In this document: positions 13,426-34,233 of the stretch, one piece after another | Position numbering within the stretch: position 1 is the first letter of the stretch | How the letters are laid out: each line of letters begins with the position of its first letter | Origin: Nitrospinaceae bacterium | Lineage (GTDB): Bacteria; Nitrospinota; Nitrospinia; Nitrospinales; VA-1 | DNA length: 50,139 nt | Reading direction: 5' to 3' | Assembly (NCBI GenBank): GCA_029261515.1 | Contig: JAJDBE010000234.1 | Coordinates: 1 to 50,139, forward strand | Translations under genes and position numbers: made by a program | The notes under the pieces: generated by a model | Databases searched by the model: none | Told to the model about the DNA's origin: nothing | What the model saw: only the letters and a program-made list of their open reading frames with translations

Positions 13426-13456
13426 CCTGCACGCGTCCTGCGGATTTCCGCCAAGA

Positions 13457-14212
13457 TCAGCCCTTATTATTACCCGCGGCCTGATTGGCCACTTTTTCCG
13501 CGGCTTTTTTGGCAGCTTCCGGATCGCCCAGATAATAATGAGTAAGGGGTTTTAGCGCGTCATCCAGCTCGTAAACCAGGGGAATGCCGGTGGGAATATT
13601 CAAGTCGACGATTTTTTCCTCGCTGATGTCGTCCAGATGCTTGACTAAAGCTCGTAAGCTATTGCCGTGGGCGCAGATCAACACCTTTTTCTTCTGCTGC
13701 AAGACAGGAACGATCTCCTCGAACCAATAAGGCAGGAAACGTTTGACTGTATCGTTGAGCGCTTCGGTGCGTGGCAGGTCCTCTTTCGCAAGGCCTGCAT
13801 AGCGGGGATCTTTGTCGGGCAGACGCTCATCCCCTTCCGCAAGCGGCGGCGGCGGTATCGAGTAACTGCGTCGCCAGATCAGCACCTGGTCGGCTCCGTG
13901 TTTGGCGGCGGTTTCTGCTTTGTTCAGCCCCTGCAGGCCGCCGTAATGACGCTCGTTCAAACGCCAGGAGCGGATCACCGGAATCCACATCAGGTCCATG
14001 TCATCCAGCACCAGCCACAAGGTGCGGATGGCGCGTTTCAGCACCGAGGTGAAAGCCATGTCAAACACATATCCCTCTTCCCGCAATAATCTTCCGGCCT
14101 CACGCGCTTCCTGCTGTCCCTGTGGAGTCAGGTCCACATCCGTCCAGCCGGTGAAACGATTGTCCAGGTTCCATTGGCTTTGACCGTGCCGCAGTAAAAC
14201 CAGTTTCAGCAT
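13457..14212 (-). CDS. gpmA: 2,3-bisphosphoglycerate-dependent phosphoglycerate mutase
   Basis: Glycolytic enzyme interconverting 3- and 2-phosphoglycerate through a phosphohistidine. The 251-residue protein has the catalytic [10 protein letters not shown] at the N terminus (His9), [12 protein letters not shown], the second catalytic region [11 protein letters not shown] and the late [12 protein letters not shown]. An Ala/Lys-rich tail ends the protein. It is a single gene flanked by recN and an HD-type gene on the other strand. With pfkA it is one of two glycolytic genes in the window. Confidence 0.97.
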
Positions 14213-14391
14213 GATTCAGAATCTCCTCAATAATCGCCCTTGTTACAGAAACAAGCGGTTTATGAACCCTTTTGACGCTCCGGCCTATTTAAACATAATT
14301 AGCGGAGTGCAATGAGACAAAATTTCGATAAAGAAAATCCTGATTTTGCCGAATAGAAGCAGATCAACCACTTCAAAAAACCCACAACTTA

Positions 14392-14420
14392 TTGACTTTT
14401 AACGGTTTATTTTTTACTCT
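14392..14420 (+). promoter_or_regulatory. Predicted sigma-70 promoter
   Basis: TTGACT, a 17-base spacer and TACTCT lie in an AT-rich stretch upstream of the HD-type gene. Transcription from here would start near 14427, which supports translation from the ATG at 14469 rather than an upstream GTG at 14424. The -10 match is modest. Confidence 0.4.
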
Positions 14421-14468
14421 AAGGTGTGGGGTATTTTGGGAAACTTTAGTCAATCAAAAGAAATCACT

Positions 14469-15452
14469 ATGGACTCCATTGCAAACTATTACCGCGAAAT
14501 CAATCGTGGGTTCCTGAATAAAGCCTGGCGCCAAGGACCGACAATCGGTTTTGAACTGTACTACAAAAGCCAAAATGGTGGTGTGGAGCCCAAGTTTTTA
14601 AAGTTTGCCGATTATGAACCCGAGACCCGGGAAAAAATCTGGACCCTTCTGGAAACAGACGGTCACGAGAGATTGTACATTCACGAAAACGATCTCATCG
14701 CATACTACGAAAAATTTTTGATCGCCAACCTGGTCCAAAGCCTGGAAGACGAAGAACCGTTTCAAAAGGTATTAAAAGATGCCTACCAGGTCGCCCGAAT
14801 GCTGCTCAATGAGTATTTTGACAACATCGGTTCTACCCGCATTCTCAGGAGTCTGGACGACGTGGTCGATATCATGATCGTTTGCATCCTGCAAGGGAAA
14901 CTGGAACCCGCGGATATCTTTCAAATCACCGAAAAAGACAAGAGCCACCCTTCGCATTGTGCCAATGCAGGTCTTTACAACATGTTTTTGGGGGTCAAAC
15001 TCAATTTGAAATCCGACGATATCCAGCAACTGGGGCTGGGAGGGCTGCTCTACGATATCGGTAAAAAATCCATCCCTAAAAACGTGCTTGAGAAGCAGGG
15101 GAAACTTTCTCCGGAAGAGTGGCAATTCATACGCAAACACCCTTCCGCCGGAAGAAAGGTGTTGAACGACATGAAATGTTACAGCCCAGCTATTTTAAAA
15201 ATGGCCGGCGAACATCATGAAAAATTCGATGGATCGGGGTATCCCCTGGGGTTGGCAGGTGAAAAAATTTCATTGTTCGCCCGAGTGACCGCAATTTCCG
15301 ACGTCTTTAACGCCCTGGTGTGTAACCGCTCTCACCATGAAGCCCGAACGGCTTTTGGCGCCCTAATGGAAATGAAAGAAAAAATGCCCGGCCACTTCGA
15401 CCCGAAAATCTTGCTCAGTTTTATCAAGGCGTTCGTACCCGCAAAGAAGTGA
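14469..15452 (+). CDS. HD-GYP-like protein with altered HD motif
   Basis: A 327-residue protein from the chosen ATG. The first half has no recognised domain; the second half is HD-GYP-like, with HPSHCANAGLYNMFLG, LLYDIGKKSIP, HPSAGRKVL, HHEKFDGSGYP and ARVTAISDVFNAL. The histidine of the HDIGK motif is tyrosine (YDIGK), while the Asp, later histidines and GSGYP remain. Family members degrade c-di-GMP; loss of one metal ligand makes activity doubtful. It is the second HD-type protein here with a damaged HD motif (see 1-890). A receiver domain is absent. Confidence 0.85.
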   Translation: MDSIANYYREINRGFLNKAWRQGPTIGFELYYKSQNGGVEPKFLKFADYEPETREKIWTLLETDGHERLYIHENDLIAYYEKFLIANLVQSLEDEEPFQKVLKDAYQVARMLLNEYFDNIGSTRILRSLDDVVDIMIVCILQGKLEPADIFQITEKDKSHPSHCANAGLYNMFLGVKLNLKSDDIQQLGLGGLLYDIGKKSIPKNVLEKQGKLSPEEWQFIRKHPSAGRKVLNDMKCYSPAILKMAGEHHEKFDGSGYPLGLAGEKISLFARVTAISDVFNALVCNRSHHEARTAFGALMEMKEKMPGHFDPKILLSFIKAFVPAKK

Positions 15453-15572
15453 CCTCTCAGGCCCTATTCCGGCGGCAACCCCACCCTTCCTCATTCAAAA
15501 CAGTCTTGAAACGCAAACAATTTCTTCTATGGTAAGATAGTCTGTCCCATTTAATTGCATGCGAGAGCCGAT

Positions 15573-15929
15573 ATGTTCATCGACGTGGAACCCAATCCCA
15601 ACACCGAAGCCAGTTTCAATATGATCTACCGGGATGTGTCTTCCCCGCGCGAGGTATTCTGCGTCAAATACCTTCTGGGCACGGAAGAACAACCGGTCCA
15701 GATCACCGGCTGGGATGTGCAAACAAATGCGCCCTGCCCGGCTTTCGCCTGCCAGGTGGAGGAATCAGGCGATGGCGTGGCGTTGCTGATTTATGGCGGC
15801 TCCGGCGGCATCCGCATGAAACCGCTGGAGGACGAATCGCCCTGGGACGTACACTCGCCGCACCAGTGGGGTCAGTCGCATCTGGTCTATCCCGTCGACA
15901 GTTTCATCGTCTACCAGGATGAGATTTAA
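15573..15929 (+). CDS. Conserved-looking hypothetical protein
   Basis: A 118-residue soluble acidic protein that I do not recognise. It starts MFIDVEPNPNT and includes ITGWDVQTNAPCP, LLIYGGSGGIRM and QWGQSHLVYPVDS; it looks like a small beta-rich domain with no signal peptide or membrane segment. The ATG at 15573 has a GAGAG ribosome site about five bases upstream and is preferred to an in-frame TTG at 15555. Codon use is like its neighbours. It stands alone between the HD-type gene and dcd (opposite strand). Confidence 0.65.
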   Translation: MFIDVEPNPNTEASFNMIYRDVSSPREVFCVKYLLGTEEQPVQITGWDVQTNAPCPAFACQVEESGDGVALLIYGGSGGIRMKPLEDESPWDVHSPHQWGQSHLVYPVDSFIVYQDEI

Positions 15930-23344: not shown

Positions 23345-23699
23345 ATAAATCCCAGGTGATTGAAGCGCTTTTTGTCCTACTCGCAAAAACCATCGCACAA
23401 AATTGAGCAGGATTGCAATAAATATTATATAAAAGTATACACTTTTTACTTTCATTTGAAAAGACCTAAAAATTCGCCCCCTTTATACCAATAAAGGTAT
23501 ATAATTTTGCTCTCATTGAACCCGTATTCATACAGGGACTGCCCGAATAGGTCGCAAAAACCCTATTGCTGAACCAGGCAATATTATTCATAATGTGGAC
23601 CGAAGATTGATTCGGATGCCTGAACATTCGGCACATTCCCCCAATTGCTTGGCTATCGATAATTCCGCGATTCACTCCTTTCAGAATTTTGAGGTGTCG
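23345..23699. other. Divergent intergenic region between the sigma-54 activator and the GT-C operon
   Basis: About 355 bp, AT-rich in its left half. It contains two overlapping inverted repeats: CCTTTAT/ATAAAGG around ACCA (23480-23497) and TATACC/GGTATA (23484-23501). A TATAAT hexamer at 23500-23505 on the plus strand overlaps the second, but no good -35 lies 17 bases upstream. No convincing -24/-12 sigma-54 promoter was found. The right end holds GAGGTG, the ribosome site for the gene at 23700. No gene is supported. Confidence 0.5.
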
Positions 23700-25874
23700 A
23701 TGAACCTTTCAGGGCCTTTCTCCCCCTTAAAACGGCAGGCAGGATGCCTCCTCATTCTGGTATTCCTGTCCCTGGTGGTTTACTCCAATTCATTGAAAGG
23801 TTCCTTTCAGTTCGATGACCAGAATCTGGTGGACGCAAAATGGGTTTTAAGTCTGGACGCTTTTAACCAACAAGTGCAAATTCGGCAGTTCGAAAACCGG
23901 CCCATTCTGCTTTGGACCTTTGCCTTAAACAACACCCTGCACAAAGGACAGGTTTTCGGGTTTCATCTCCTCAACCTATTGCTGCACGTCCTGGTGGTTG
24001 TGTTGATATTTTTCATTCTGCAAAAAACACAGACGATTCGCTGCCGAAGTGTTGCAGGAGAAACCCGTCTCGTTTTTCCGTTTCTCGCGGCTTTATTGTT
24101 CGCCGTGCACCCGTTGAACACGGATTCGGTCAGTTACATCGCTTCCCGCTCGACACTTCTAGCAACGTTTTTTTATCTGCTCACGCTTTATATTTTCCTG
24201 CAGATGTTTTCGTTAGCAGAAGGTAGAGGAAAAATACTGGCCCGGTGGGTTCTTGGCTCGCTTGTCGCCGCTGGCCTGTTTGCGGGCCTGGCCTCGAAAC
24301 TGATCGCGGTGACACTGCCCGCGCTTTTACTTCTCTGGTTTTGCTTTTTTATCTGTCCGGTCCAATTTCCCCGACTCGCGGCGCTGGCATTCAGCAAAAA
24401 AATGCGACCTGCCTATGCGGGAATTTTTATCCTCCTGGCGGCGCTGGCCTTGTGGAGGGGATCTCAACTCCTGTACTCGCCTAAAGATCAGGGACTGGAA
24501 TTGTTCGGCAGAATGCCTTATTTCTGGGTGCAGGCCAAGGTCATCGTTTTTCATTACCTCAACCTGTTTTTCGCTCCAATTAATCTCAGCGTGGACAGCG
24601 GCTTTCCCTTCAGCGGCTTTTTCGCCGACCCGCAAATCCCTTTGTCGATCCTGCTGATTGCGGCGATCCTGATTTTTTCCCTTAAGTTCGGCAACTTGTG
24701 GATCAAGGCGGGAGTCCTGTGGTTTTTTCTCACTCTGGCGCCGACGTCGAGCCTCGTTCCCCTCAATGATCTGGCAGTGGAACACCGCATGTATCTGCCG
24801 ATGAGCCTCGGTTTGTGCCTCATTGCCGGGTATGGGTCGAGCCGCCTGCCCAAAGTATGGCGGTCCGGAGTGTTCACGATCCTCATTATTCTGCTCGGCG
24901 CCTTGACCCTCGACCGCAACCGGGTGTGGACCGATGAACTGCATTTGTGGCAGGACGCGGTCCGAAAAAACCCGCACTCGCCGAGAACGCACAATAACCT
25001 GGGCAAAGCCTATTATGAGCAGGGGTTTCTCGATCAGGCTCTCGTTCACTTTCAAAAGAGCAACGAAAATATCCCGAGGCATATAGCAGTTCAATACAAT
25101 CTTAAAGACCCGGCGGCGTTTCTCGTCAGAAAAACAGGGAACGCAAATAATTCGGAGATGGTAGACCCTCAAAAAAACTTAAAAATTTACGCCGATCTCG
25201 CGGAACCGCACTACAATCTCGCCAGCGTGTATCTCGACAAGGGCGATCTTCAGCTTGCCAAGCAGGAATACCAGACGGCGCTCAGCCTCAACCCGAATTA
25301 CTTCAGCGCCCTTTTGGGCATTGGCTCGGTCTACACCCGGCTGGGGCAAAATGAAAAGGCCATCGAGTCGCTGCACCTGGCAATCGACAAAAGAAAAGCG
25401 GCAACCGGCGAAGCGGACTATTCCCTGGCGCGGCTGAATCTGGGCGAAATCTACGGACGCGCCGGCCAGTTTGCGAAAGCCGTTCGAGAACTCAAAATCG
25501 CCGTCCATCACGACCCGTCTTTGGTTCTTGGTCACTATAACTTAGGCGTGGCTTACCTGATGACGGGAAAACTGGAACAAGCCGAGCAAACGTTGCAACG
25601 GTGTTTGACCTTGAACGACCGCTTCGAACCGGCCCTATTCAATCTTGCCAGGGTGTATCAGGCTAAAAAAGAATGGGAAAAATCCAATCTGCAATTTGAA
25701 CGTTTTCTTAAAGTCAAAGGCCCGGATGCGGGGGCTTTTTATCAGATCGGCTGGAACCACGTGCAGGCGGGGAGTTTCGAGGAAGCGCGCAGACACCTCA
25801 AACAAGCCTTGCGATCCAATCCGCCGCCTAAACAAGCTGAAGAAATATCCCGGCTATTACAGGAATTGTCTTAA
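23700..25874 (+). CDS. GT-C-type membrane glycosyltransferase with C-terminal TPRs (paralogue 1)
   Basis: A 724-residue protein from the ATG at 23700, which has GAGGTG seven bases upstream. The N-terminal ~400 residues form many membrane helices. The first periplasmic loop has FQFDDQNLV with two Asp (39, 40), as in GT-C enzymes using polyprenyl-phosphate sugars. Later motifs are SYIASRSTLLATFF, FGRMPYFWVQAK and VEHRMYLP. The rest is TPR repeats with pattern HNNLGKAYYEQG, HYNLASVYLDKG, HYNLGVAYLMTG. The architecture resembles TMTC-type O-mannosyltransferases; protein O-glycosylation is inferred. First of four co-directional genes. Confidence 0.85.
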   Translation: MNLSGPFSPLKRQAGCLLILVFLSLVVYSNSLKGSFQFDDQNLVDAKWVLSLDAFNQQVQIRQFENRPILLWTFALNNTLHKGQVFGFHLLNLLLHVLVVVLIFFILQKTQTIRCRSVAGETRLVFPFLAALLFAVHPLNTDSVSYIASRSTLLATFFYLLTLYIFLQMFSLAEGRGKILARWVLGSLVAAGLFAGLASKLIAVTLPALLLLWFCFFICPVQFPRLAALAFSKKMRPAYAGIFILLAALALWRGSQLLYSPKDQGLELFGRMPYFWVQAKVIVFHYLNLFFAPINLSVDSGFPFSGFFADPQIPLSILLIAAILIFSLKFGNLWIKAGVLWFFLTLAPTSSLVPLNDLAVEHRMYLPMSLGLCLIAGYGSSRLPKVWRSGVFTILIILLGALTLDRNRVWTDELHLWQDAVRKNPHSPRTHNNLGKAYYEQGFLDQALVHFQKSNENIPRHIAVQYNLKDPAAFLVRKTGNANNSEMVDPQKNLKIYADLAEPHYNLASVYLDKGDLQLAKQEYQTALSLNPNYFSALLGIGSVYTRLGQNEKAIESLHLAIDKRKAATGEADYSLARLNLGEIYGRAGQFAKAVRELKIAVHHDPSLVLGHYNLGVAYLMTGKLEQAEQTLQRCLTLNDRFEPALFNLARVYQAKKEWEKSNLQFERFLKVKGPDAGAFYQIGWNHVQAGSFEEARRHLKQALRSNPPPKQAEEISRLLQELS

Positions 25875-25907
25875 CTGCAAAAGACCACGCTGACTCATCT
25901 CATTGGC

Positions 25908-27842
25908 ATGCGCAATATAGAACCCCACATCAAGGCCCTCGCCGTTTTAAGTCTGCTGGGAATCCTGTGCTTTTTCGCCACGCTTAAAGCGCCGTTTGTC
26001 TATGACGATCTCCACGCGATTGTGGAAAACCCGCACATCCGCAGTCTTGCGGATTTCCAGGAAGTGGTGGGCATTCAGAACATTTTCAACCGCTCGGTCG
26101 TGCTCTTCACCTATGCTGTCAACCGGCATCTTGGGGAACTCGACGTCTTTGGATTTCATCTCTTCAATCTTCTGCTCCACATATTTGTGGGAGTCGTATT
26201 TTATTTTCTGACAACGGAATTGCTCGCCCTGGAAACCACCGAACGCCGGGCACGGTTGCGGTCACTGCCTCTAGTGGCCGCCGCGATTCATCTGATGCAT
26301 CCGATGGCTGTGCAACCGGTCACCTACCTTTCCAGCCGGTCTTCTATTCTGGCCAGCTTGTTTTTTCTTCTGGGATTTTATTTTTTCATTCAAAGTCTGA
26401 AACTGTGGCAACAGCGCCATCGCCGCTACCAGATGTTTTTCTGCATAATTCTTGTACTTTTATGTTGCTTCTTGGGAGCCGGCAGCAAAGAAATCATCGT
26501 GACCCTTCCTGTCATCGTCATGGTGTATGTGTGGTTGCAATTTCCCCAGCTGGGATTGAGAAAGTTTGGTCTTCTCTGTCTCTTGGTTCTCGCTCCGCTG
26601 TTGCTCTACCTGGCGTACCGCTATCTCCACCTCGGCAACCTGTTCGTCCTTAAAGCCGACCCGGAATCCATGCAAATGGACCGTGTGCTTTATTTTTTAA
26701 CTCAAATAAAGGTCCTCATATTTTATTACCTGTGGAAACTTATCCTGCCACTGAACCTTAACTTCGAACCGGACGTTCGTCTGGCGGCGGGCCTTTTCGA
26801 TCCCGAATGGCTGACCGGACTGGCCGCAATGATCTGTTTGACCGCCGGGTTGTATCTGCAAAAATCCAGATTATTGCAATTTACTTTTCTATGGGCGTTC
26901 ATCGCATTTCTTCCCACTTCGAGTTTCATTCCTCTCAAGCAAATCGTCACCGAACACCGGGCCTATTTGCCAGGGTTTGGAATTTACTTGGCGCTGGGAC
27001 TGGCGTTGTTGGCCGCCTGCCGCAACCGTCCGGTGCGCACGGGAATGGTGATGGCGGCTTTTCTACTGCTGACCGCGCTGCTTACTTTGAACCGCAGTCT
27101 GGATTTCCGTTCGGAAATCGTCCTGTGGCAGGACACGGCGAAAAAATCGCCGCGCAAAGCCCTCGTCCATAACAATCTGGCCTCGGCCTATCTTGCCGAA
27201 AAAATGTGGACCCCGGCAGAGGCAGAATTGCAACGTGCGCTTGACCTCGATCCAGGGCAAACCGACGCCAGCATCAATCTCGGTCATCTATATTCACAGC
27301 GGGAACAATGGGAAAAAGCCCGCATCGAATTTGACCGGGCCATTCTGCTGGGCTCGCCCAAGGCAGAGGCTTTTTACAATGCCGGACTGGTGCGGATTCA
27401 TTTAAACAGGACGGAAGAAGCCATCGTGTTTTTTAAAAAAGCCGTCGAGATGAAACCACAACAAGCAAAATACCATTTTGAACTTGGCAATGCCTATCGG
27501 TCCCTGAGCCTGCTTGACGATGCCTTGCAAGAATACCGGCTCACCTTAGAAAACCAACCCGATCACTTACAGGCCCACAATAATCGGGGGGTGATCTTCT
27601 GGAATCTGAAACAATTTTCTCTAGCGGAAGAAGCCTTTCAAAAAGCGTTGCCCCTCAGCGACAAGGATCCGGAAATCCACAACAATCTGGCCAGTATCTA
27701 TCTCGTGCAGAATCGCTACGAAGAAGCGATTCCACACCTTGAGCGGTTGATCGCCCTGCAACCTCAAAATACCAAAGCCAAAGAACTGCTGCGCGTCGCC
27801 ATGACAATGAACGACGCCGCTACAGCACAGGACAGACCATGA
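25908..27842 (+). CDS. GT-C-type membrane glycosyltransferase with C-terminal TPRs (paralogue 2)
   Basis: A 644-residue paralogue of the previous gene, 33 bp downstream. It has the same layout: membrane helices to about residue 390, the acidic pair in FVYDDLHAIVENP (Asp33, Asp34), TYLSSRSSILASLFFL, RVLYFLTQIKVL and TEHRAYLPGFG, then about six TPRs (HNNLASAYLAEK, FELGNAYRSLSL, HNNRGVIFWNLK, HNNLASIYLVQN). The intact DD pair suggests an active enzyme. Its stop overlaps the ATG of the next gene by four bases. No clear ribosome binding site before the ATG. Confidence 0.85.
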   Translation: MRNIEPHIKALAVLSLLGILCFFATLKAPFVYDDLHAIVENPHIRSLADFQEVVGIQNIFNRSVVLFTYAVNRHLGELDVFGFHLFNLLLHIFVGVVFYFLTTELLALETTERRARLRSLPLVAAAIHLMHPMAVQPVTYLSSRSSILASLFFLLGFYFFIQSLKLWQQRHRRYQMFFCIILVLLCCFLGAGSKEIIVTLPVIVMVYVWLQFPQLGLRKFGLLCLLVLAPLLLYLAYRYLHLGNLFVLKADPESMQMDRVLYFLTQIKVLIFYYLWKLILPLNLNFEPDVRLAAGLFDPEWLTGLAAMICLTAGLYLQKSRLLQFTFLWAFIAFLPTSSFIPLKQIVTEHRAYLPGFGIYLALGLALLAACRNRPVRTGMVMAAFLLLTALLTLNRSLDFRSEIVLWQDTAKKSPRKALVHNNLASAYLAEKMWTPAEAELQRALDLDPGQTDASINLGHLYSQREQWEKARIEFDRAILLGSPKAEAFYNAGLVRIHLNRTEEAIVFFKKAVEMKPQQAKYHFELGNAYRSLSLLDDALQEYRLTLENQPDHLQAHNNRGVIFWNLKQFSLAEEAFQKALPLSDKDPEIHNNLASIYLVQNRYEEAIPHLERLIALQPQNTKAKELLRVAMTMNDAATAQDRP

Positions 27843-29611
27843 TCCTCCCGGCAAAAACCCTGTGGAGACAAGTCGGCTGTTGCGGGATGATCGCCTTCTT
27901 GGGAATCGTGATTTATGGCAACCATCTGCAAAACGCCTTCCAGTTCGACAGCGTCGCCTACGTCGTCAACAGCCCTAAACTGCAAGCTCCCGATGAGATG
28001 CTGACCTTTGAGTTTTTAAAAAAAGATTACTTTGCCAGAAGCCTCTTGCAAATTTCGCTGGCTGTCAACGCCAAACTGGGCGGCTTCCAACCTTTTGGGT
28101 ACCACCTCTTCAATCTTACATTTCACATTTTTAACGCATTGTTGGTGTTTTTTATTACCGGGAAACTGTGCCGCTTTTTTTCTTTGCATCGAACAGGCTG
28201 GAACCAGAAGAGTATCAACTTAGCTTCTCTCTTGACCGCACTGTTGTTTCTTTGCCATCCGATTCAGACCGAATCGGTGGTCTATATCATGAGCCGGTCG
28301 GAAGTGCTGGCGGGCACATTTTACCTCACAGGTTTTTTTATTTTTCAATCCTGCCTGGATAAGGAATTTCCTCCCTCAGGCCTATTTAAATATGTTTTCG
28401 GTCCGGCGGGTATTATTCTCGCTTTTATTTTCGGGTTCAGCGTCAAGCAAACTCTGATCACCCTGCCCGCGGTTTTATTGCTCTATCTCTTTTGCCAACT
28501 CGGCCCCGAATCCCGGTTCGTTCGATTTTTTAAGCGCTGGAAGTGGGTTCTTGGCGGAATCGCCTGCGTCGTTCTCGCCCTGCTGCTCCGCAAACTCCTG
28601 ATCGATGAAACCTTTTTGATCGGCCCTTCCAACCCGGAAGAAATGGTGGGCCGAAAAAAATACATGCTGAGCCAGCCGTCGGTCATCGTTTTCTTTTATC
28701 TGCGACTGTTGTTATTTCCCATCAACCTCAACATCGATCCGGATATTCCCGTGGTCACGAGCTTGTTTTCCCTGCGATTTCTTTTGCCTGCAGGACTGAT
28801 GATTGGCTTAGTTTATGCGACCGTCAAGACCAGCGCCCCGCGCATCGCGTTCTTTTGCATCCTGTGGTTTCTCATCATTCTTTCCCCGTCTTCTTCGATC
28901 GTGACTCTGCACGACCTGGCGGCGGAGCACAGGATTTATCTGGCCGCCTATGGGTTCTGTCTCATTTCTTCAGTGAGCATGGTGCGCCTGATGAACCGGC
29001 TTGAAACCACTGCGTTCCTCAAACCCACTAGCGCGGCTCTTCTGCTGATACTTTTTGTGGCGTTTCTTGCAGCCACAACCGGAAAAAGGAATCTGGCATG
29101 GAGAAGTGAATTGAGTCTATGGGAGGACGCCCGGAAAAAATCGCCGCATCTCGTGCGTCCGTTGATAAACCTGGGAAGAGCTTACAGCCTGACGGGGCAG
29201 ACCGATCGGGCGATTTATTTTTACGAAATGTCTCTAAAAAAAGCGCCCGGAGTTTTTGTCACCTATTACAATCTGGGGGAACTTTATCTTGAGCAAGGGA
29301 GGATCGAAGCCGCCTTAAAATTATTGCATCACGCGGAGAAGCTGGACTCCAGCATTCCCGAAGTCCACGCCTCACTCGGCGAAATTTATCTCAACACCAA
29401 ACAGTATGAACTCGCAGAGCATTATTTTAGAAGAGCCGTGGAGCTGAACCCGAAATACGCCGTGGCGTTGCGTAATCTCGGCATCCTGAATTATTTTCAC
29501 CTCGACCAACCGCAACAGGGAATCGTCTATTTTTCCCGATCTCTGACGCTGGACCCAAATCAGCCTGAGGCGGAAGATATTCGCAAACTCGTCGCGCAAA
29601 AATTCAACTAA
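27839..29611 (+). CDS. GT-C-type membrane glycosyltransferase with C-terminal TPRs (paralogue 3, altered acidic pair)
   Basis: A 590-residue third paralogue, starting with an ATGA overlap. Membrane helices occupy the first ~400 residues, with FQFDSVAYVVNSP where the others have DD; the second acidic residue is Ser (38). VVYIMSRSEVLAGTF, GRKKYMLSQPSVIVFF and AEHRIYLAAYG match the paralogues, and about four TPRs follow (YYNLGELYLEQG, HASLGEIYLNTK). Either one Asp suffices or this copy has a changed role; that is undecided. It is followed after 11 bases by the SGNH-type gene. Confidence 0.85.
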   Translation: MILPAKTLWRQVGCCGMIAFLGIVIYGNHLQNAFQFDSVAYVVNSPKLQAPDEMLTFEFLKKDYFARSLLQISLAVNAKLGGFQPFGYHLFNLTFHIFNALLVFFITGKLCRFFSLHRTGWNQKSINLASLLTALLFLCHPIQTESVVYIMSRSEVLAGTFYLTGFFIFQSCLDKEFPPSGLFKYVFGPAGIILAFIFGFSVKQTLITLPAVLLLYLFCQLGPESRFVRFFKRWKWVLGGIACVVLALLLRKLLIDETFLIGPSNPEEMVGRKKYMLSQPSVIVFFYLRLLLFPINLNIDPDIPVVTSLFSLRFLLPAGLMIGLVYATVKTSAPRIAFFCILWFLIILSPSSSIVTLHDLAAEHRIYLAAYGFCLISSVSMVRLMNRLETTAFLKPTSAALLLILFVAFLAATTGKRNLAWRSELSLWEDARKKSPHLVRPLINLGRAYSLTGQTDRAIYFYEMSLKKAPGVFVTYYNLGELYLEQGRIEAALKLLHHAEKLDSSIPEVHASLGEIYLNTKQYELAEHYFRRAVELNPKYAVALRNLGILNYFHLDQPQQGIVYFSRSLTLDPNQPEAEDIRKLVAQKFN

Positions 29612-31177: not shown

Positions 31178-32158
31178 TTAATTTATTAAATGATTAATAT
31201 TCCATTTTGGTGGGTACCAATAGTGAATTGGTTCGGGATTCAGTTTGAATTTTTGCTTGATCTTCTGTCGACCGGATATACCTTTAATATGAGGATGGCT
31301 GATTCTAGAATATTTGTCGACCTCACAAAAAATATTTTGGCAATCGATAAGCTGAAGTGGCCTTCCCCAAAGAGATTTGAACTCTAAACCCAGCCTTTCA
31401 AATTCTCTTTCCTGAATATCAGCCATATACCTTATTACATCGGAGTCACACAGCCCTCCGGTGTCCAAAAAACATTTTCTAATCCCATCCTTGGCCCCAG
31501 GCCCCGCTACAACGAATTCATTCTCTTGAGCATTGGTCAACTCGCTATAAGCAACATCGATGGCATATTGATAAGCTAAAAAAGGACCCAGGGTTGGATA
31601 TTCAAAGAATAACTTAAAAATTTCTTCCAAACTTTTTGCGTCTGTTATCTTTTTAGGAAGATGAGTTTTTATCATCAATTCAATCAACCTTAAATGATTT
31701 TGATGTTTTTTCGTGGCACCAAAGCTACTTTTTCCTGAGGGCATTATATAGGCTCCCGAGTATATCTTTTTCCCCTCCTTTATTATCTTTTGTAACAACG
31801 AATCATAAGTCTTATATGAAAAATCTTTTAACTCAATTTGGTTTCCTAGACTATTCTCTAGAAATTGCCAAGTTTCTATTTTATTGAAAATTTTGAAAAG
31901 AATAATTCGGAAGAAAACTTCTTTTGGGCGTTGAGACCCTTTATAGATAACATTTCGAATCAGGAATTGACTGACTCTATCCGATGCGCGGTAGGCATTA
32001 GTGAATTTATAACAGCTTAAGATGGGGTCTAAGGTGAGGGGAGCAACCGGATTTGAAATTCGTCTAAAAAAAATATTTTGTCGCTCAAATGCAAATTTCC
32101 AGTAGACATCGAAAATTGAAGTATTGCGAAAAAACGTTGGGGAAATGGAAGTAAGCAA
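31178..32158 (-). CDS. 5-hydroxymethyl-dU DNA kinase-helical / thymine-pyrophosphorylase-like family protein
   Basis: A 326-residue protein matching a family described for phage DNA base hypermodification and annotated as 5-hmdU DNA kinase helical domain or alpha-glutamyl/putrescinyl-thymine pyrophosphorylase. Hallmarks are WKFAFERQNIFFRR (20-33), DPILSCYKFTNAYRASDRVSQ (44-64, given in part), FRIILFKIFNKIETW, GAYIMPSG, YPTLGPFLAYQYAID (187-201, like a helix-hairpin-helix glycosylase with trailing Asp), GPGAKDGIRKCF and RPLQLIDCQNIFCEVDKY. Start is TTG, six bases past the TAG of the upstream gene and in its frame. It is AT-rich. The exact reaction is unknown; a role on modified or free bases is inferred. 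Confidence 0.75.
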   Translation of the reverse strand: MLTSISPTFFRNTSIFDVYWKFAFERQNIFFRRISNPVAPLTLDPILSCYKFTNAYRASDRVSQFLIRNVIYKGSQRPKEVFFRIILFKIFNKIETWQFLENSLGNQIELKDFSYKTYDSLLQKIIKEGKKIYSGAYIMPSGKSSFGATKKHQNHLRLIELMIKTHLPKKITDAKSLEEIFKLFFEYPTLGPFLAYQYAIDVAYSELTNAQENEFVVAGPGAKDGIRKCFLDTGGLCDSDVIRYMADIQEREFERLGLEFKSLWGRPLQLIDCQNIFCEVDKYSRISHPHIKGISGRQKIKQKFKLNPEPIHYWYPPKWNINHLIN

Positions 32159-32161
32159 AAC

Positions 32162-32989
32162 CTAATCTTTTAAAGGGAGTCCGTTGGGCTTTGGTTTTAA
32201 ATTTCTCATTTCTTGTTCTACGAGTTTTTTAATTTGATCCTTTGATTGGGTTTGGATTTCCTTTTCAATTTTCATATGAACTTTCTCTTCGATTTTATTA
32301 TTTTTGTGCAAATCCCACAACAATCTACCAGAAAAAGTTAATAGAATAAAACTAAGAGCAGCTATTAGTCCTCCGAGCACCCATTTTTTTACATTATTCT
32401 CAACGTCCTTGATTTCATCTCTAAGGTCAGTAATTCTATCCTTAAGAGCTATTGGATTATACACTTCGCCATTTATAGAATTTATCAAGTCCACACCGAT
32501 TTCATTAAAGCCCTCGGCCTTCTTAATATAATTGGATTTTTTATCTAAACTGGCGTACCAAATTAGAAAAAATTTTTGACCTCTCCTTAAAGTTATACTT
32601 TTCGGTCCCGCGTTATAAACCGAAAATATTAGCCTTCCTTTATATCCAGGATCAACGTGAAAACCAGAAACATTCACTAACCCTTGGAATTTGTATTTGG
32701 CCTTAAAAGAAATAAAAGCTATGGCATCTTCCGGGACATGAACTATTTCTTCAGTAAGAAAAAATGCAAATTGACCATACGGAATATTAAAATGTTGATT
32801 TTCCTCTAGGGCTTGTTTTGTGTGGTTTCTAATTTCAGGAGACTCATAATTGGGGGTAATAAATACTTCAGACCCAATTCTTAAAGGGTAAGCAGCACAA
32901 TCTATATTGTTTTCGGAAGCTGCTGTCCCATCTTCCAAAGTAATCAATTCGGGAAGTCTATCTCTGAGAGTCTCACCACTCCAAAACAT
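32162..32989 (-). CDS. dUTPase/dCTP-deaminase-fold protein with transmembrane and coiled-coil tail
   Basis: A 275-residue protein. Residues 1-150 follow the dCTP deaminase/dUTPase fold: AAYPLRIGSEV, SFKAKYKFQGLVNVSGFHVDPGYKG in pieces, then LIFSVYNAGP and RRGQKFFLIWYA. Asp113 of GFHVDPGY matches the conserved Asp of the fold, but the deaminase Glu aligns with Ser123 and the SS of the phosphate loop is replaced. Deamination is therefore unlikely; dUTP hydrolysis or nucleotide sensing is possible. A coiled coil, one membrane helix (203-221) and a second charged helix follow. AGGA lies eight bases before the ATG. Being membrane-tethered is unusual for the fold. Confidence 0.75.
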   Translation of the reverse strand: MFWSGETLRDRLPELITLEDGTAASENNIDCAAYPLRIGSEVFITPNYESPEIRNHTKQALEENQHFNIPYGQFAFFLTEEIVHVPEDAIAFISFKAKYKFQGLVNVSGFHVDPGYKGRLIFSVYNAGPKSITLRRGQKFFLIWYASLDKKSNYIKKAEGFNEIGVDLINSINGEVYNPIALKDRITDLRDEIKDVENNVKKWVLGGLIAALSFILLTFSGRLLWDLHKNNKIEEKVHMKIEKEIQTQSKDQIKKLVEQEMRNLKPKPNGLPLKD

Positions 32990-33013: not shown

Positions 33014-33667
33014 TTACAGATTTCCGAAGAAAATTGATCGCTTTTCAACTTCCAACCAGCGGTCTCGGACGGCCTGAAAAAGATCCAGGTTTAATTGAGA
33101 GGAAAATATGAGGGTGGATTCAAAAATTTCCTTTAATCCTTTAGTAATTATTTCCTTGAATGAGTAAGCCTCTAAATGATCCAGCTTTTCGCAGGCCTTT
33201 GCAATTTTCCCATTCCCTTTGGACAAAGCTTTTAAAAACCAATCGGGATCGAATTTTGAAAGGTGATTTGCTTCTTTCAATGCATTTCCTAACTCCTTAC
33301 AAGTAAGCACCCCTTGGTTTGGCAATTCTTTTAATCCATCAGAAAGTTTCAAGTTCAAAATATTGCCCATAATTAGGCTGATCACAAAAATGTCTATAAT
33401 CGTTTGCTCAAGGTTCGTTCGGTTTTTTTGAGTTGATCCATTTTCTTCAATGGTTTCAGCAATTTGGCCAGCATACTTTGCAAAATGTAAGGTCATATGA
33501 TTGATTCGGTTCTGAACCGATAACGAACAAATTTCTTTATGATATTTCTCATCATGCTTTAGCTGTTCCAATTGAAGCTCGAAAATCTGTTCAAAGACAT
33601 CTTTAAATGGATTTTCCTCCTTTGGACTCACTCCTTTTATATCTAAAACCTTCGCCCGAGCTCCCAT
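33014..33667 (-). CDS. Unrecognised all-helical protein, faintly MazG-like
   Basis: A 217-residue, AT-rich, probably soluble helical protein. I do not recognise it with confidence. The segments HFAKYAGQIAETIEEN (about 60-75) and TIIDIFVISLIMGNIL recall the two metal-binding helices of MazG-type all-alpha NTP pyrophosphatases (E..GELAE and ELADVLIYLL), but the acidic residues are mostly absent. It would thus be inactive or merely similar. It overlaps the stop of the upstream ribbon-helix-helix gene by one base (TGATG) and precedes the dUTPase-fold gene by 24 bases. A partner-toxin role with the small regulator is another possibility. Confidence 0.6.
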   Translation of the reverse strand: MGARAKVLDIKGVSPKEENPFKDVFEQIFELQLEQLKHDEKYHKEICSLSVQNRINHMTLHFAKYAGQIAETIEENGSTQKNRTNLEQTIIDIFVISLIMGNILNLKLSDGLKELPNQGVLTCKELGNALKEANHLSKFDPDWFLKALSKGNGKIAKACEKLDHLEAYSFKEIITKGLKEIFESTLIFSSQLNLDLFQAVRDRWLEVEKRSIFFGNL

Positions 33668-33918
33668 CAGGTTCCCCCTTTATCCTTATTTAATTGGATA
33701 ATTTTACTCTTCTCATTATTTTTTCTACTTTCCCAAGCAATCTTCACATCCTTTTCTTCCTTAAGTTTTTTTGCAAAAAGCTCATTTATAGCCCGTTCCA
33801 CAATTTGGGAATACTTTAGACGAAATTCCAGGCAGTCACTTAATATTTCAATTTTGGCAACAACTTCTGAGTCTAAAGTGAAATTTTTACGGGCTTTATT
33901 TTCTTTTTTTGGTGCCAT
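33667..33918 (-). CDS. Ribbon-helix-helix DNA-binding protein
   Basis: An 83-residue basic protein. KNFTLD forms the expected beta strand, followed by helix VVAKIEILSDCLEF, a short turn and helix SQIVERAINELFAKKL, the usual ribbon-helix-helix order, then a charged tail. GAGGG precedes the ATG. A palindrome at 33942-33952 between the promoter and the ATG fits autoregulation. First gene of the four-gene island, whose members are separated by -1, 24 and 3 bases. Such proteins also serve as antitoxins. Confidence 0.7.
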   Translation of the reverse strand: MAPKKENKARKNFTLDSEVVAKIEILSDCLEFRLKYSQIVERAINELFAKKLKEEKDVKIAWESRKNNEKSKIIQLNKDKGGT

Positions 33919-34146: not shown

Positions 34147-34233
34147 GCCGGAGTGGTGAAATTGGTAGACGCGCAGGATTCAAAATCCTGTATCCGCAAG
34201 GGTGTGACGGTTCGAGTCCGTCCTCCGGCACCA
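34147..34233 (+). tRNA. tRNA-Leu (anticodon CAA)
   Basis: An 87-base class II tRNA. The acceptor arm GCCGGAG pairs with CTCCGGC, followed by A and an encoded CCA. The anticodon stem CAGGA/TCCTG encloses TTCAAAA with anticodon CAA at 34181-34183, reading UUG. A long variable arm (ATCCGCAAGGGT region) and the T arm GACGG-TTCGAGT-CCGTC are present. It borders the AT-rich island, whose promoter lies about 145 bases upstream on the other strand. Confidence 0.97.

What the first reader, a model, noticed from the sequence alone, without database searches (positions are those of the whole stretch)
31178..32158. Orphan member of the DNA base-hypermodification family with a glycosylase-like core
The protein keeps WKFAFERQNIFFRR, YPTLGPFLAYQYAID and RPLQLIDCQNIFCEVDKY, but no hmdU kinase P-loop domain, hydroxymethylase or thymidylate synthase-like gene is adjacent. 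A stand-alone copy in a bacterial chromosome may act on phage modified thymines rather than make them.
Basis: partly seen in the sequence, partly recalled or inferred. Interest (0 to 1): 0.7.

Follow-up and report, generated by a model that had tools for sequence, protein, structure and literature searches.

The report
Nucleotide-handling operon containing an HMUDK protein
The protein is a real member of a DNA-base hypermodification family and is predicted to fold like a DNA glycosylase, but it is not an orphan: it is the last gene of a small, laterally acquired operon with two dUTPase-like genes, a partnership that formed several separate times in evolution and looks like an anti-phage module.

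Summary
ORF 31178-32158(-) is a full-length PF18723 HMUDK_hel protein (E 1.7e-110). It has no P-loop, and no thymidylate synthase lies next to it. The "glycosylase-like core" is supported as a fold: AlphaFold2 (pLDDT 93.6) matches HhH-GPD-type enzymes, best a phage 5-PmdU glycinyltransferase (Z 10.9).

"Orphan" is wrong. The gene ends a tight, AT-rich operon (35.5% GC against 50%): RHH, p217, DCD-TM, HMUDK. p217 is predicted to fold like dimeric dUTPases. DCD-TM is a membrane-anchored dCTP-deaminase/dUTPase homologue whose deaminase Glu is Ser/Ala in 14/14 homologues. The same p217-DCD-HMUDK triad occurs in Pseudomonas, Rhizobium and Acinetobacter. Its HMUDKs are not one clade (AU p 4e-56; 4 changes), so the pairing recurred. 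Other p217/DCD loci carry uracil-DNA glycosylase or DUF1643 instead. Most bacterial HMUDK genes sit with TS-like, MazG, XRE/M78, TIR or Nmad2 genes. Systems with a 5-hmdU kinase and a thymidylate synthase domain have blocked phage in E. coli (PMC13092281).

Best reading: a conflict, probably anti-phage, module around 5-substituted deoxyuridine. Chemistry is unproven. New variant of a known kind.

The parts
31178..32158 (-). HMUDK: HMUDK_hel-family protein, 326 aa, predicted HhH-GPD-like fold, no P-loop
   Evidence: PF18723 E 1.7e-110; model pLDDT 93.6; structure matches; 40-row alignment with about 50 invariant residues
32162..32989 (-). DCD-TM: dCTP-deaminase/dUTPase-like domain plus C-terminal transmembrane segment and charged tail, 275 aa
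   Evidence: PF22769 E 2.7e-13; TIGR02274 68.9 bits, below its 92.8 cut-off; Glu138 equivalent Ser/Ala in 14/14, hydrophobic tail segment
33014..33667 (-). p217: all-alpha protein, 217 aa, dimeric-dUTPase-like fold
   Evidence: model pLDDT 82.9; top 11 structural rows are dimeric dUTPases, Z 10.4-11.3, next row 7.4; invariant H/D/E/K residues
33667..33918 (-). Small putative RHH/Arc-type regulator, 83 aa; not conserved with the triad in L045
   Evidence: weak PHROG regulator matches, E 0.006-0.02; overlaps the p217 start
34147..34233 (+). tRNA-Leu(CAA) next to the island (boundary landmark; not part of the system)

Best explanation
A laterally acquired biological-conflict module, most likely anti-phage, centred on 5-substituted deoxyuridine. 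Shown by computation: a compact operon of HMUDK (HhH-GPD-like fold), p217 (dimeric-dUTPase-like fold) and DCD-TM (deaminase Glu lost, membrane-anchored, trimeric-dUTPase/dCTP-deaminase-like), assembled repeatedly from unrelated HMUDK lineages. Inferred: p217 and DCD-TM form a unit that binds or hydrolyses a deoxyuridine-type nucleotide at the membrane. HMUDK flips or binds a modified uracil (hydroxymethyl- or phosphomethyl-dU, in phage DNA or as a nucleotide) and processes it. During infection this either destroys modified DNA or nucleotide, or yields the ligand that switches DCD-TM at the membrane. My split: conflict-module status about 0.75, the detailed mechanism about 0.25; the figure below is for the statement as a whole.
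For: Operon layout and AT-rich island, lowest GC of 237 windows. Sparse in the phylum: HMUDK in 4 of 77 genomes, a strong DCD-TM match only in this one. Same triad in Pseudomonas L045, Rhizobium plasmid L056, Acinetobacter plasmid L058 (twice) and L145, the last followed by TIR and Nmad2. Four separate gains of the link, one clade rejected, p-AU 4e-56. Of 13 plasmids with p217 or DCD-TM, 5 hold HMUDK (21 of 72,556 plasmids do) and 5 hold UDG. Dimeric-dUTPase fold of p217; lost deaminase Glu and conserved TM of DCD-TM. Most bacterial HMUDK loci carry TS-like, MazG, XRE/M78, TIR or Nmad2 genes. Published: a 5-hydroxymethyluracil kinase domain and a thymidylate synthase domain occur in phage-protective systems in E. 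coli (PMC13092281).
Against: No activity, binding or phage data for this operon. Genes around it are not known defence genes and PADLOC gives no convincing match. The p217-DCD pair also occurs without HMUDK (L062, L063, L064, L146, L147). The p217 model rests on 5 sequences. No empty site was found in relatives.
Confidence: 0.5

Rival explanations
1. Strict form of the first reader's idea: HMUDK alone is a base-excision enzyme that removes modified thymine from invading phage DNA, and the two dUTPase-like proteins only tune dUTP pools.
For: HhH-GPD-like fold; UDG takes HMUDK's place beside p217-DCD or DCD-MazG_C in L059-L061, L063 and L064.
Against: The best fold match is a transferase, not a glycosylase; phage relatives lie in modification gene clusters; no sequence homology to HhH-GPD enzymes; the membrane anchor of DCD-TM is unexplained.
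Confidence: 0.15
2. HMUDK takes part in modifying the host's own DNA or nucleotides, as its phage relatives do, and the operon is a self-marking or epigenetic system.
For: Phage relatives sit with thymidylate synthase/pyrimidine hydroxymethylase and glycosyltransferases; bacterial relatives often have TS-like and dNMP-kinase genes.
Against: No hydroxymethylase, kinase or transferase near this copy; no restriction partner seen.
Confidence: 0.15
3. House-cleaning: the operon removes damaged or non-canonical deoxyuridine nucleotides and has nothing to do with phages.
For: Two dUTPase-like folds plus a base-handling fold.
Against: Sparse distribution, low GC, plasmid carriage and links with TIR, Nmad2 and XRE/M78 genes; lost deaminase Glu and conserved TM are odd for a housekeeping enzyme.
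Confidence: 0.1
4. A relic of a phage or other mobile element with no present function.
For: p217 homologues in T4-like Acinetobacter phages; p217-DCD remnant in viral contig L067; low GC.
Against: All four genes are open and the invariant residues of HMUDK, DCD-TM and p217 are kept; no phage structural, integrase or replication gene among the neighbours scanned.
Confidence: 0.1

Closest known systems
Phage 5-hmdU DNA kinase / aGPT-Pplase helical-domain family (PF18723; SP10, PhiW-14, LuckyBarnes, Montesquieu)
   Same: Same Pfam family over full length and same predicted fold
   Different: This copy is chromosomal, lacks a P-loop, and has no TS/hydroxymethylase or transferase neighbours; phage copies lie in modification clusters
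Systems with 5-hydroxymethyluracil kinase and thymidylate synthase domains, validated, and predicted aGPT-Pplase / MazG-C / dUTPase / UDG systems (DefensePredictor, PMC13092281)
   Same: HMUDK_hel-type protein with nucleotide-metabolism partners; dUTPase and UDG domains are also named there
   Different: Here the partners are p217 and DCD-TM, with no TS or dNMP kinase; the gene orders of the published systems were not available to compare
ACP-XRE-M78-TS-HMUDK-MazG_C-AcpS operons of cyanobacteria and proteobacteria (L003-L016, L047)
   Same: Closest HMUDK sequences, up to 63% identity
   Different: None of those partner genes is in the window
5-PmdU glycinyltransferase gp46/PUGT of phage PaMx11 (8z2n)
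   Same: Best solved structural match, Z 10.9 over 221 residues
   Different: 8% identity; different substrate and chemistry possible
Dimeric and trimeric dUTPases as regulators in phage/SaPI conflict (PMC5608427)
   Same: p217 resembles dimeric dUTPases, DCD-TM the trimeric fold
   Different: Both are bacterial operon genes here; DCD-TM is membrane-anchored; p217 has its own conserved residue set

Membership tests
HMUDK_hel (PF18723) | Full-length profile match above the curated cut-off | tested here: met
   369 bits against 25, profile 1-281/281
5-hmdU DNA kinase (active enzyme) | P-loop kinase domain fused or adjacent | tested here: not met
   No Walker A in the operon; only an ABC transporter in 26-40 kb
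HhH-GPD superfamily fold | Overall fold similarity | tested here: met
   Z 10.9 to 8z2n and about 6-9 to OGG/AlkA/AGOG-type enzymes; Foldseek E-values weak
HhH-GPD DNA glycosylase | Catalytic Asp after the HhH motif, glycosylase activity | tested here: inconclusive
   By eye GPGA stands where the Asp is expected, but no residue-level superposition was possible and hhalign found nothing
dCTP deaminase (DCD-TM) | Catalytic Glu138 (E. coli numbering) | tested here: not met
   Ser/Ala in 14/14 homologues; score below the NCBIfam equivalog cut-off
Trimeric dUTPase (DCD-TM) | Conserved Asp and hydrolysis of dUTP | tested here: inconclusive
   Asp113 kept in 14/14; activity not tested
Dimeric dUTPase / MazG superfamily (p217) | All-alpha dUTPase fold | tested here: met
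   11 dUTPase entries at Z 10.4-11.3, next row 7.4; helical folds give middling Z easily, so moderate strength
Dimeric dUTPase / MazG superfamily (p217) | Metal-binding EExxE / ExxD motifs | tested here: inconclusive
   The alignment keeps H38 D39 H43 H57 H61 K64 D92 N102 E160 D163 H164 E166 instead of an invariant EExxE; no residue-level superposition
Anti-phage defence system | Protects cells from phage | not testable with these tools
   Only contextual evidence here; related systems were tested by others (PMC13092281)

The most novel reading that the evidence does not exclude
An undescribed immune module in which a membrane-anchored, deaminase-dead dCTP-deaminase fold acts as sensor or effector for a modified-deoxyuridine ligand, partnered with an atypical dimeric-dUTPase-like protein and an interchangeable base-handling enzyme (HMUDK, UDG or DUF1643).
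Probability: 0.3. Interest if true: 0.85.

Novelty: new variant of a known kind. Interest (0 to 1): 0.57.

Why it matters
If the module is immune, bacteria use against phages the same protein family that phages use to hypermodify their DNA, coupled to both unrelated dUTPase folds. It would give many bacterial HMUDK_hel genes a role and offers a small testable unit: p217 and DCD-TM as a core with a swappable base-handling enzyme. It also shows that lack of a P-loop or hydroxymethylase does not make such a gene an orphan.

Tried and rejected
Orphan gene: rejected by the operon and by recurrence of the triad. Kinase by itself: no P-loop. dCTP deaminase activity of DCD-TM by the known mechanism: Glu absent. 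One inherited HMUDK lineage tied to p217-DCD: rejected by the AU test. Led nowhere: empty-site comparison, because the flanking genes are not clearly orthologous or syntenic in the family; a repeat of the tRNA as an integration mark (no exact repeat of 12 nt or more in the window); sigma-70-like sites, no more than chance, although TTGACA-18-AATAGT lies upstream of the first gene; E. coli copies of the L045 triad (no blastn match); DCD-TM in viral contigs (none with the single protein, one with the alignment); HhH-GPD sequence homology by hhalign; PDB sequence search with the HMUDK profile (chance hits only). Papers on DCD-TM-like effectors or UDG/MazG/ACP systems: none in the library searched; Iyer et al. 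2013 is not held.

Full report
Observation. The ORF at 31178-32158 on the minus strand encodes 326 aa and carries the three motifs quoted. Pfam assigns PF18723 HMUDK_hel across the full profile, E 1.7e-110. There is no P-loop in it or in its operon; the only Walker A in 26-40 kb is an ABC transporter. No thymidylate-synthase gene is near. So the sequence statement is correct.

It is not an orphan. Four minus-strand genes are packed almost without gaps: RHH 33667-33918, p217 33014-33667, DCD-TM 32162-32989, HMUDK 31178-32158. Their GC is 35.5% against 50.1% for the window, the lowest of 237 sliding windows. The island lies beside tRNA-Leu, on the side of its 5' end, so the usual 3'-end integration mark is absent. 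HMUDK occurs in 4 of 77 genomes of the phylum; a strong DCD-TM match occurs only in this one. This points to lateral acquisition.

Partners. DCD-TM carries a dCTP-deaminase/dUTPase-like domain, E 2.7e-13. Aligned to E. coli Dcd, the position of Glu138 is Ser or Ala in 14/14 homologues, that of Arg115 is Lys in 14/14, and the dUTPase-type Asp is kept in 14/14. A hydrophobic C-terminal segment is present in all 13 homologues whose tail was included. p217 was modelled at pLDDT 82.9. Its 11 best structural matches are all dimeric dUTPases, Z 10.4-11.3, before a drop to 7.4. So both unrelated dUTPase folds are represented. Dimeric and trimeric phage dUTPases act as regulators in phage-island conflict (PMC5608427).

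HMUDK fold. The model (pLDDT 93.6) matches phage 5-PmdU glycinyltransferase 8z2n best (Z 10.9, 221 residues, 3.9 A), then the queuine-salvage enzyme DUF2419 and HhH-GPD glycosylases. Foldseek puts 8z2n first too, with weak E-values. Against viral models it finds SP10 5-hmdU DNA kinase and several stand-alone phage proteins including PhiW-14. The glycosylase-like core is thus supported as a fold. Sequence profiles do not reach HhH-GPD proteins, and glycosylase chemistry is unproven.

Recurrence. The contiguous triad p217-DCD-HMUDK is also in Pseudomonas L045, Rhizobium plasmid L056 and Acinetobacter plasmid L058 (two copies). In L145 a small membrane protein gene separates DCD from HMUDK, and TIR and Nmad2 follow. 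L048 and L057 carry all three within one region. On a tree of 54 HMUDKs the p217-DCD link needs four changes, and the AU test rejects one clade of the four linked rows, p 4e-56. The HMUDK of L145 is 77% identical to a TS/TIR/Nmad2-type HMUDK and only 54% to the window's. In the plasmid collection 13 records hold p217 or DCD-TM. Five of them also hold HMUDK, which occurs in 21 of 72,556 plasmids; five hold UDG; none holds both. UDG was confirmed as PF03167 in L060; the others rest on similarity to it and on annotation. L062 and L147 have DUF1643 instead, and L146 has neither. So p217-DCD-TM looks like a core with interchangeable base-handling partners. Mutual exclusion of HMUDK and UDG in 13 records is only modestly significant (my calculation, p about 0.04).

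Wider family. Among 51 bacterial HMUDK loci, 39 have a TS-like gene, 31 MazG/MazG_C, 27 XRE or M78 peptidase, 13 Nmad2, 12 holo-ACP synthase and 10 TIR within 7 kb. Many form ACP-XRE-M78-TS-HMUDK-MazG_C-AcpS operons. DefensePredictor reports phage-protective systems in E. coli that contain a 5-hydroxymethyluracil kinase domain and a thymidylate synthase domain, and predicts aGPT-Pplase, MazG-C, dUTPase and UDG-containing systems as defensive (PMC13092281). Figures were not readable, so gene orders there could not be compared. The general idea is therefore known; the particular triad was not found described in the library searched.

Mechanism. Shown by computation: architecture, folds, residue losses, recurrence, lateral spread. 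Inferred: p217 and DCD-TM bind or hydrolyse a deoxyuridine-type nucleotide at the membrane; HMUDK handles a 5-substituted uracil in DNA or nucleotide; the trigger is phage infection. Whether HMUDK removes, reads or makes the modification cannot be decided from sequence. Replacement by UDG favours removal or reading; phage kin and the 8z2n match favour transfer chemistry.

Limits. The operon lies in a draft genome of 308 contigs. The p217 model rests on five sequences. No empty insertion site was found.

Noticed in passing
L058 (NZ_CP113934.1) 339-2599 and 13434-15681: An Acinetobacter plasmid carries two copies of the p217-DCD-HMUDK triad, and the HMUDK match is split into two pieces in different frames in both copies.
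   Followed up: partly
L045 8965-9294 and L145 6971-7312: Small proteins (109 and 113 aa) with two hydrophobic stretches accompany the Pseudomonas-type triads; no Pfam match.
   Followed up: partly
L003-L016, L047, L056, L118: Bacterial HMUDK operons often include an acyl-carrier-protein-like gene and a holo-ACP synthase beside XRE, M78 peptidase, papain-like peptidase and TS-like genes; the role of ACP chemistry in a nucleotide system is unexplained.
   Followed up: no
L023 8956-9681 (Mucilaginibacter): HMUDK lies next to an AlkB-type 2OG-Fe(II) oxygenase gene (PF13532) and has no TS or MazG; oxidation might be another route to hydroxymethyluracil.
   Followed up: no
L115 3995-4597; other T4-like Acinetobacter phages Acj9, Ac42, 133; jumbo phage pPa_SNUABM_DT01: p217 homologues occur in early regions of T4-like Acinetobacter phages without DCD-TM nearby.
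   Followed up: partly
L033 6224-7183 and 8001-8924: Two HMUDK genes in tandem in an uncultured cyanobacterium.
   Followed up: no
window 23595-29611: Three successive large proteins with C-terminal tetratricopeptide repeats, probably membrane proteins, upstream of the SGNH-like gene.
   Followed up: no
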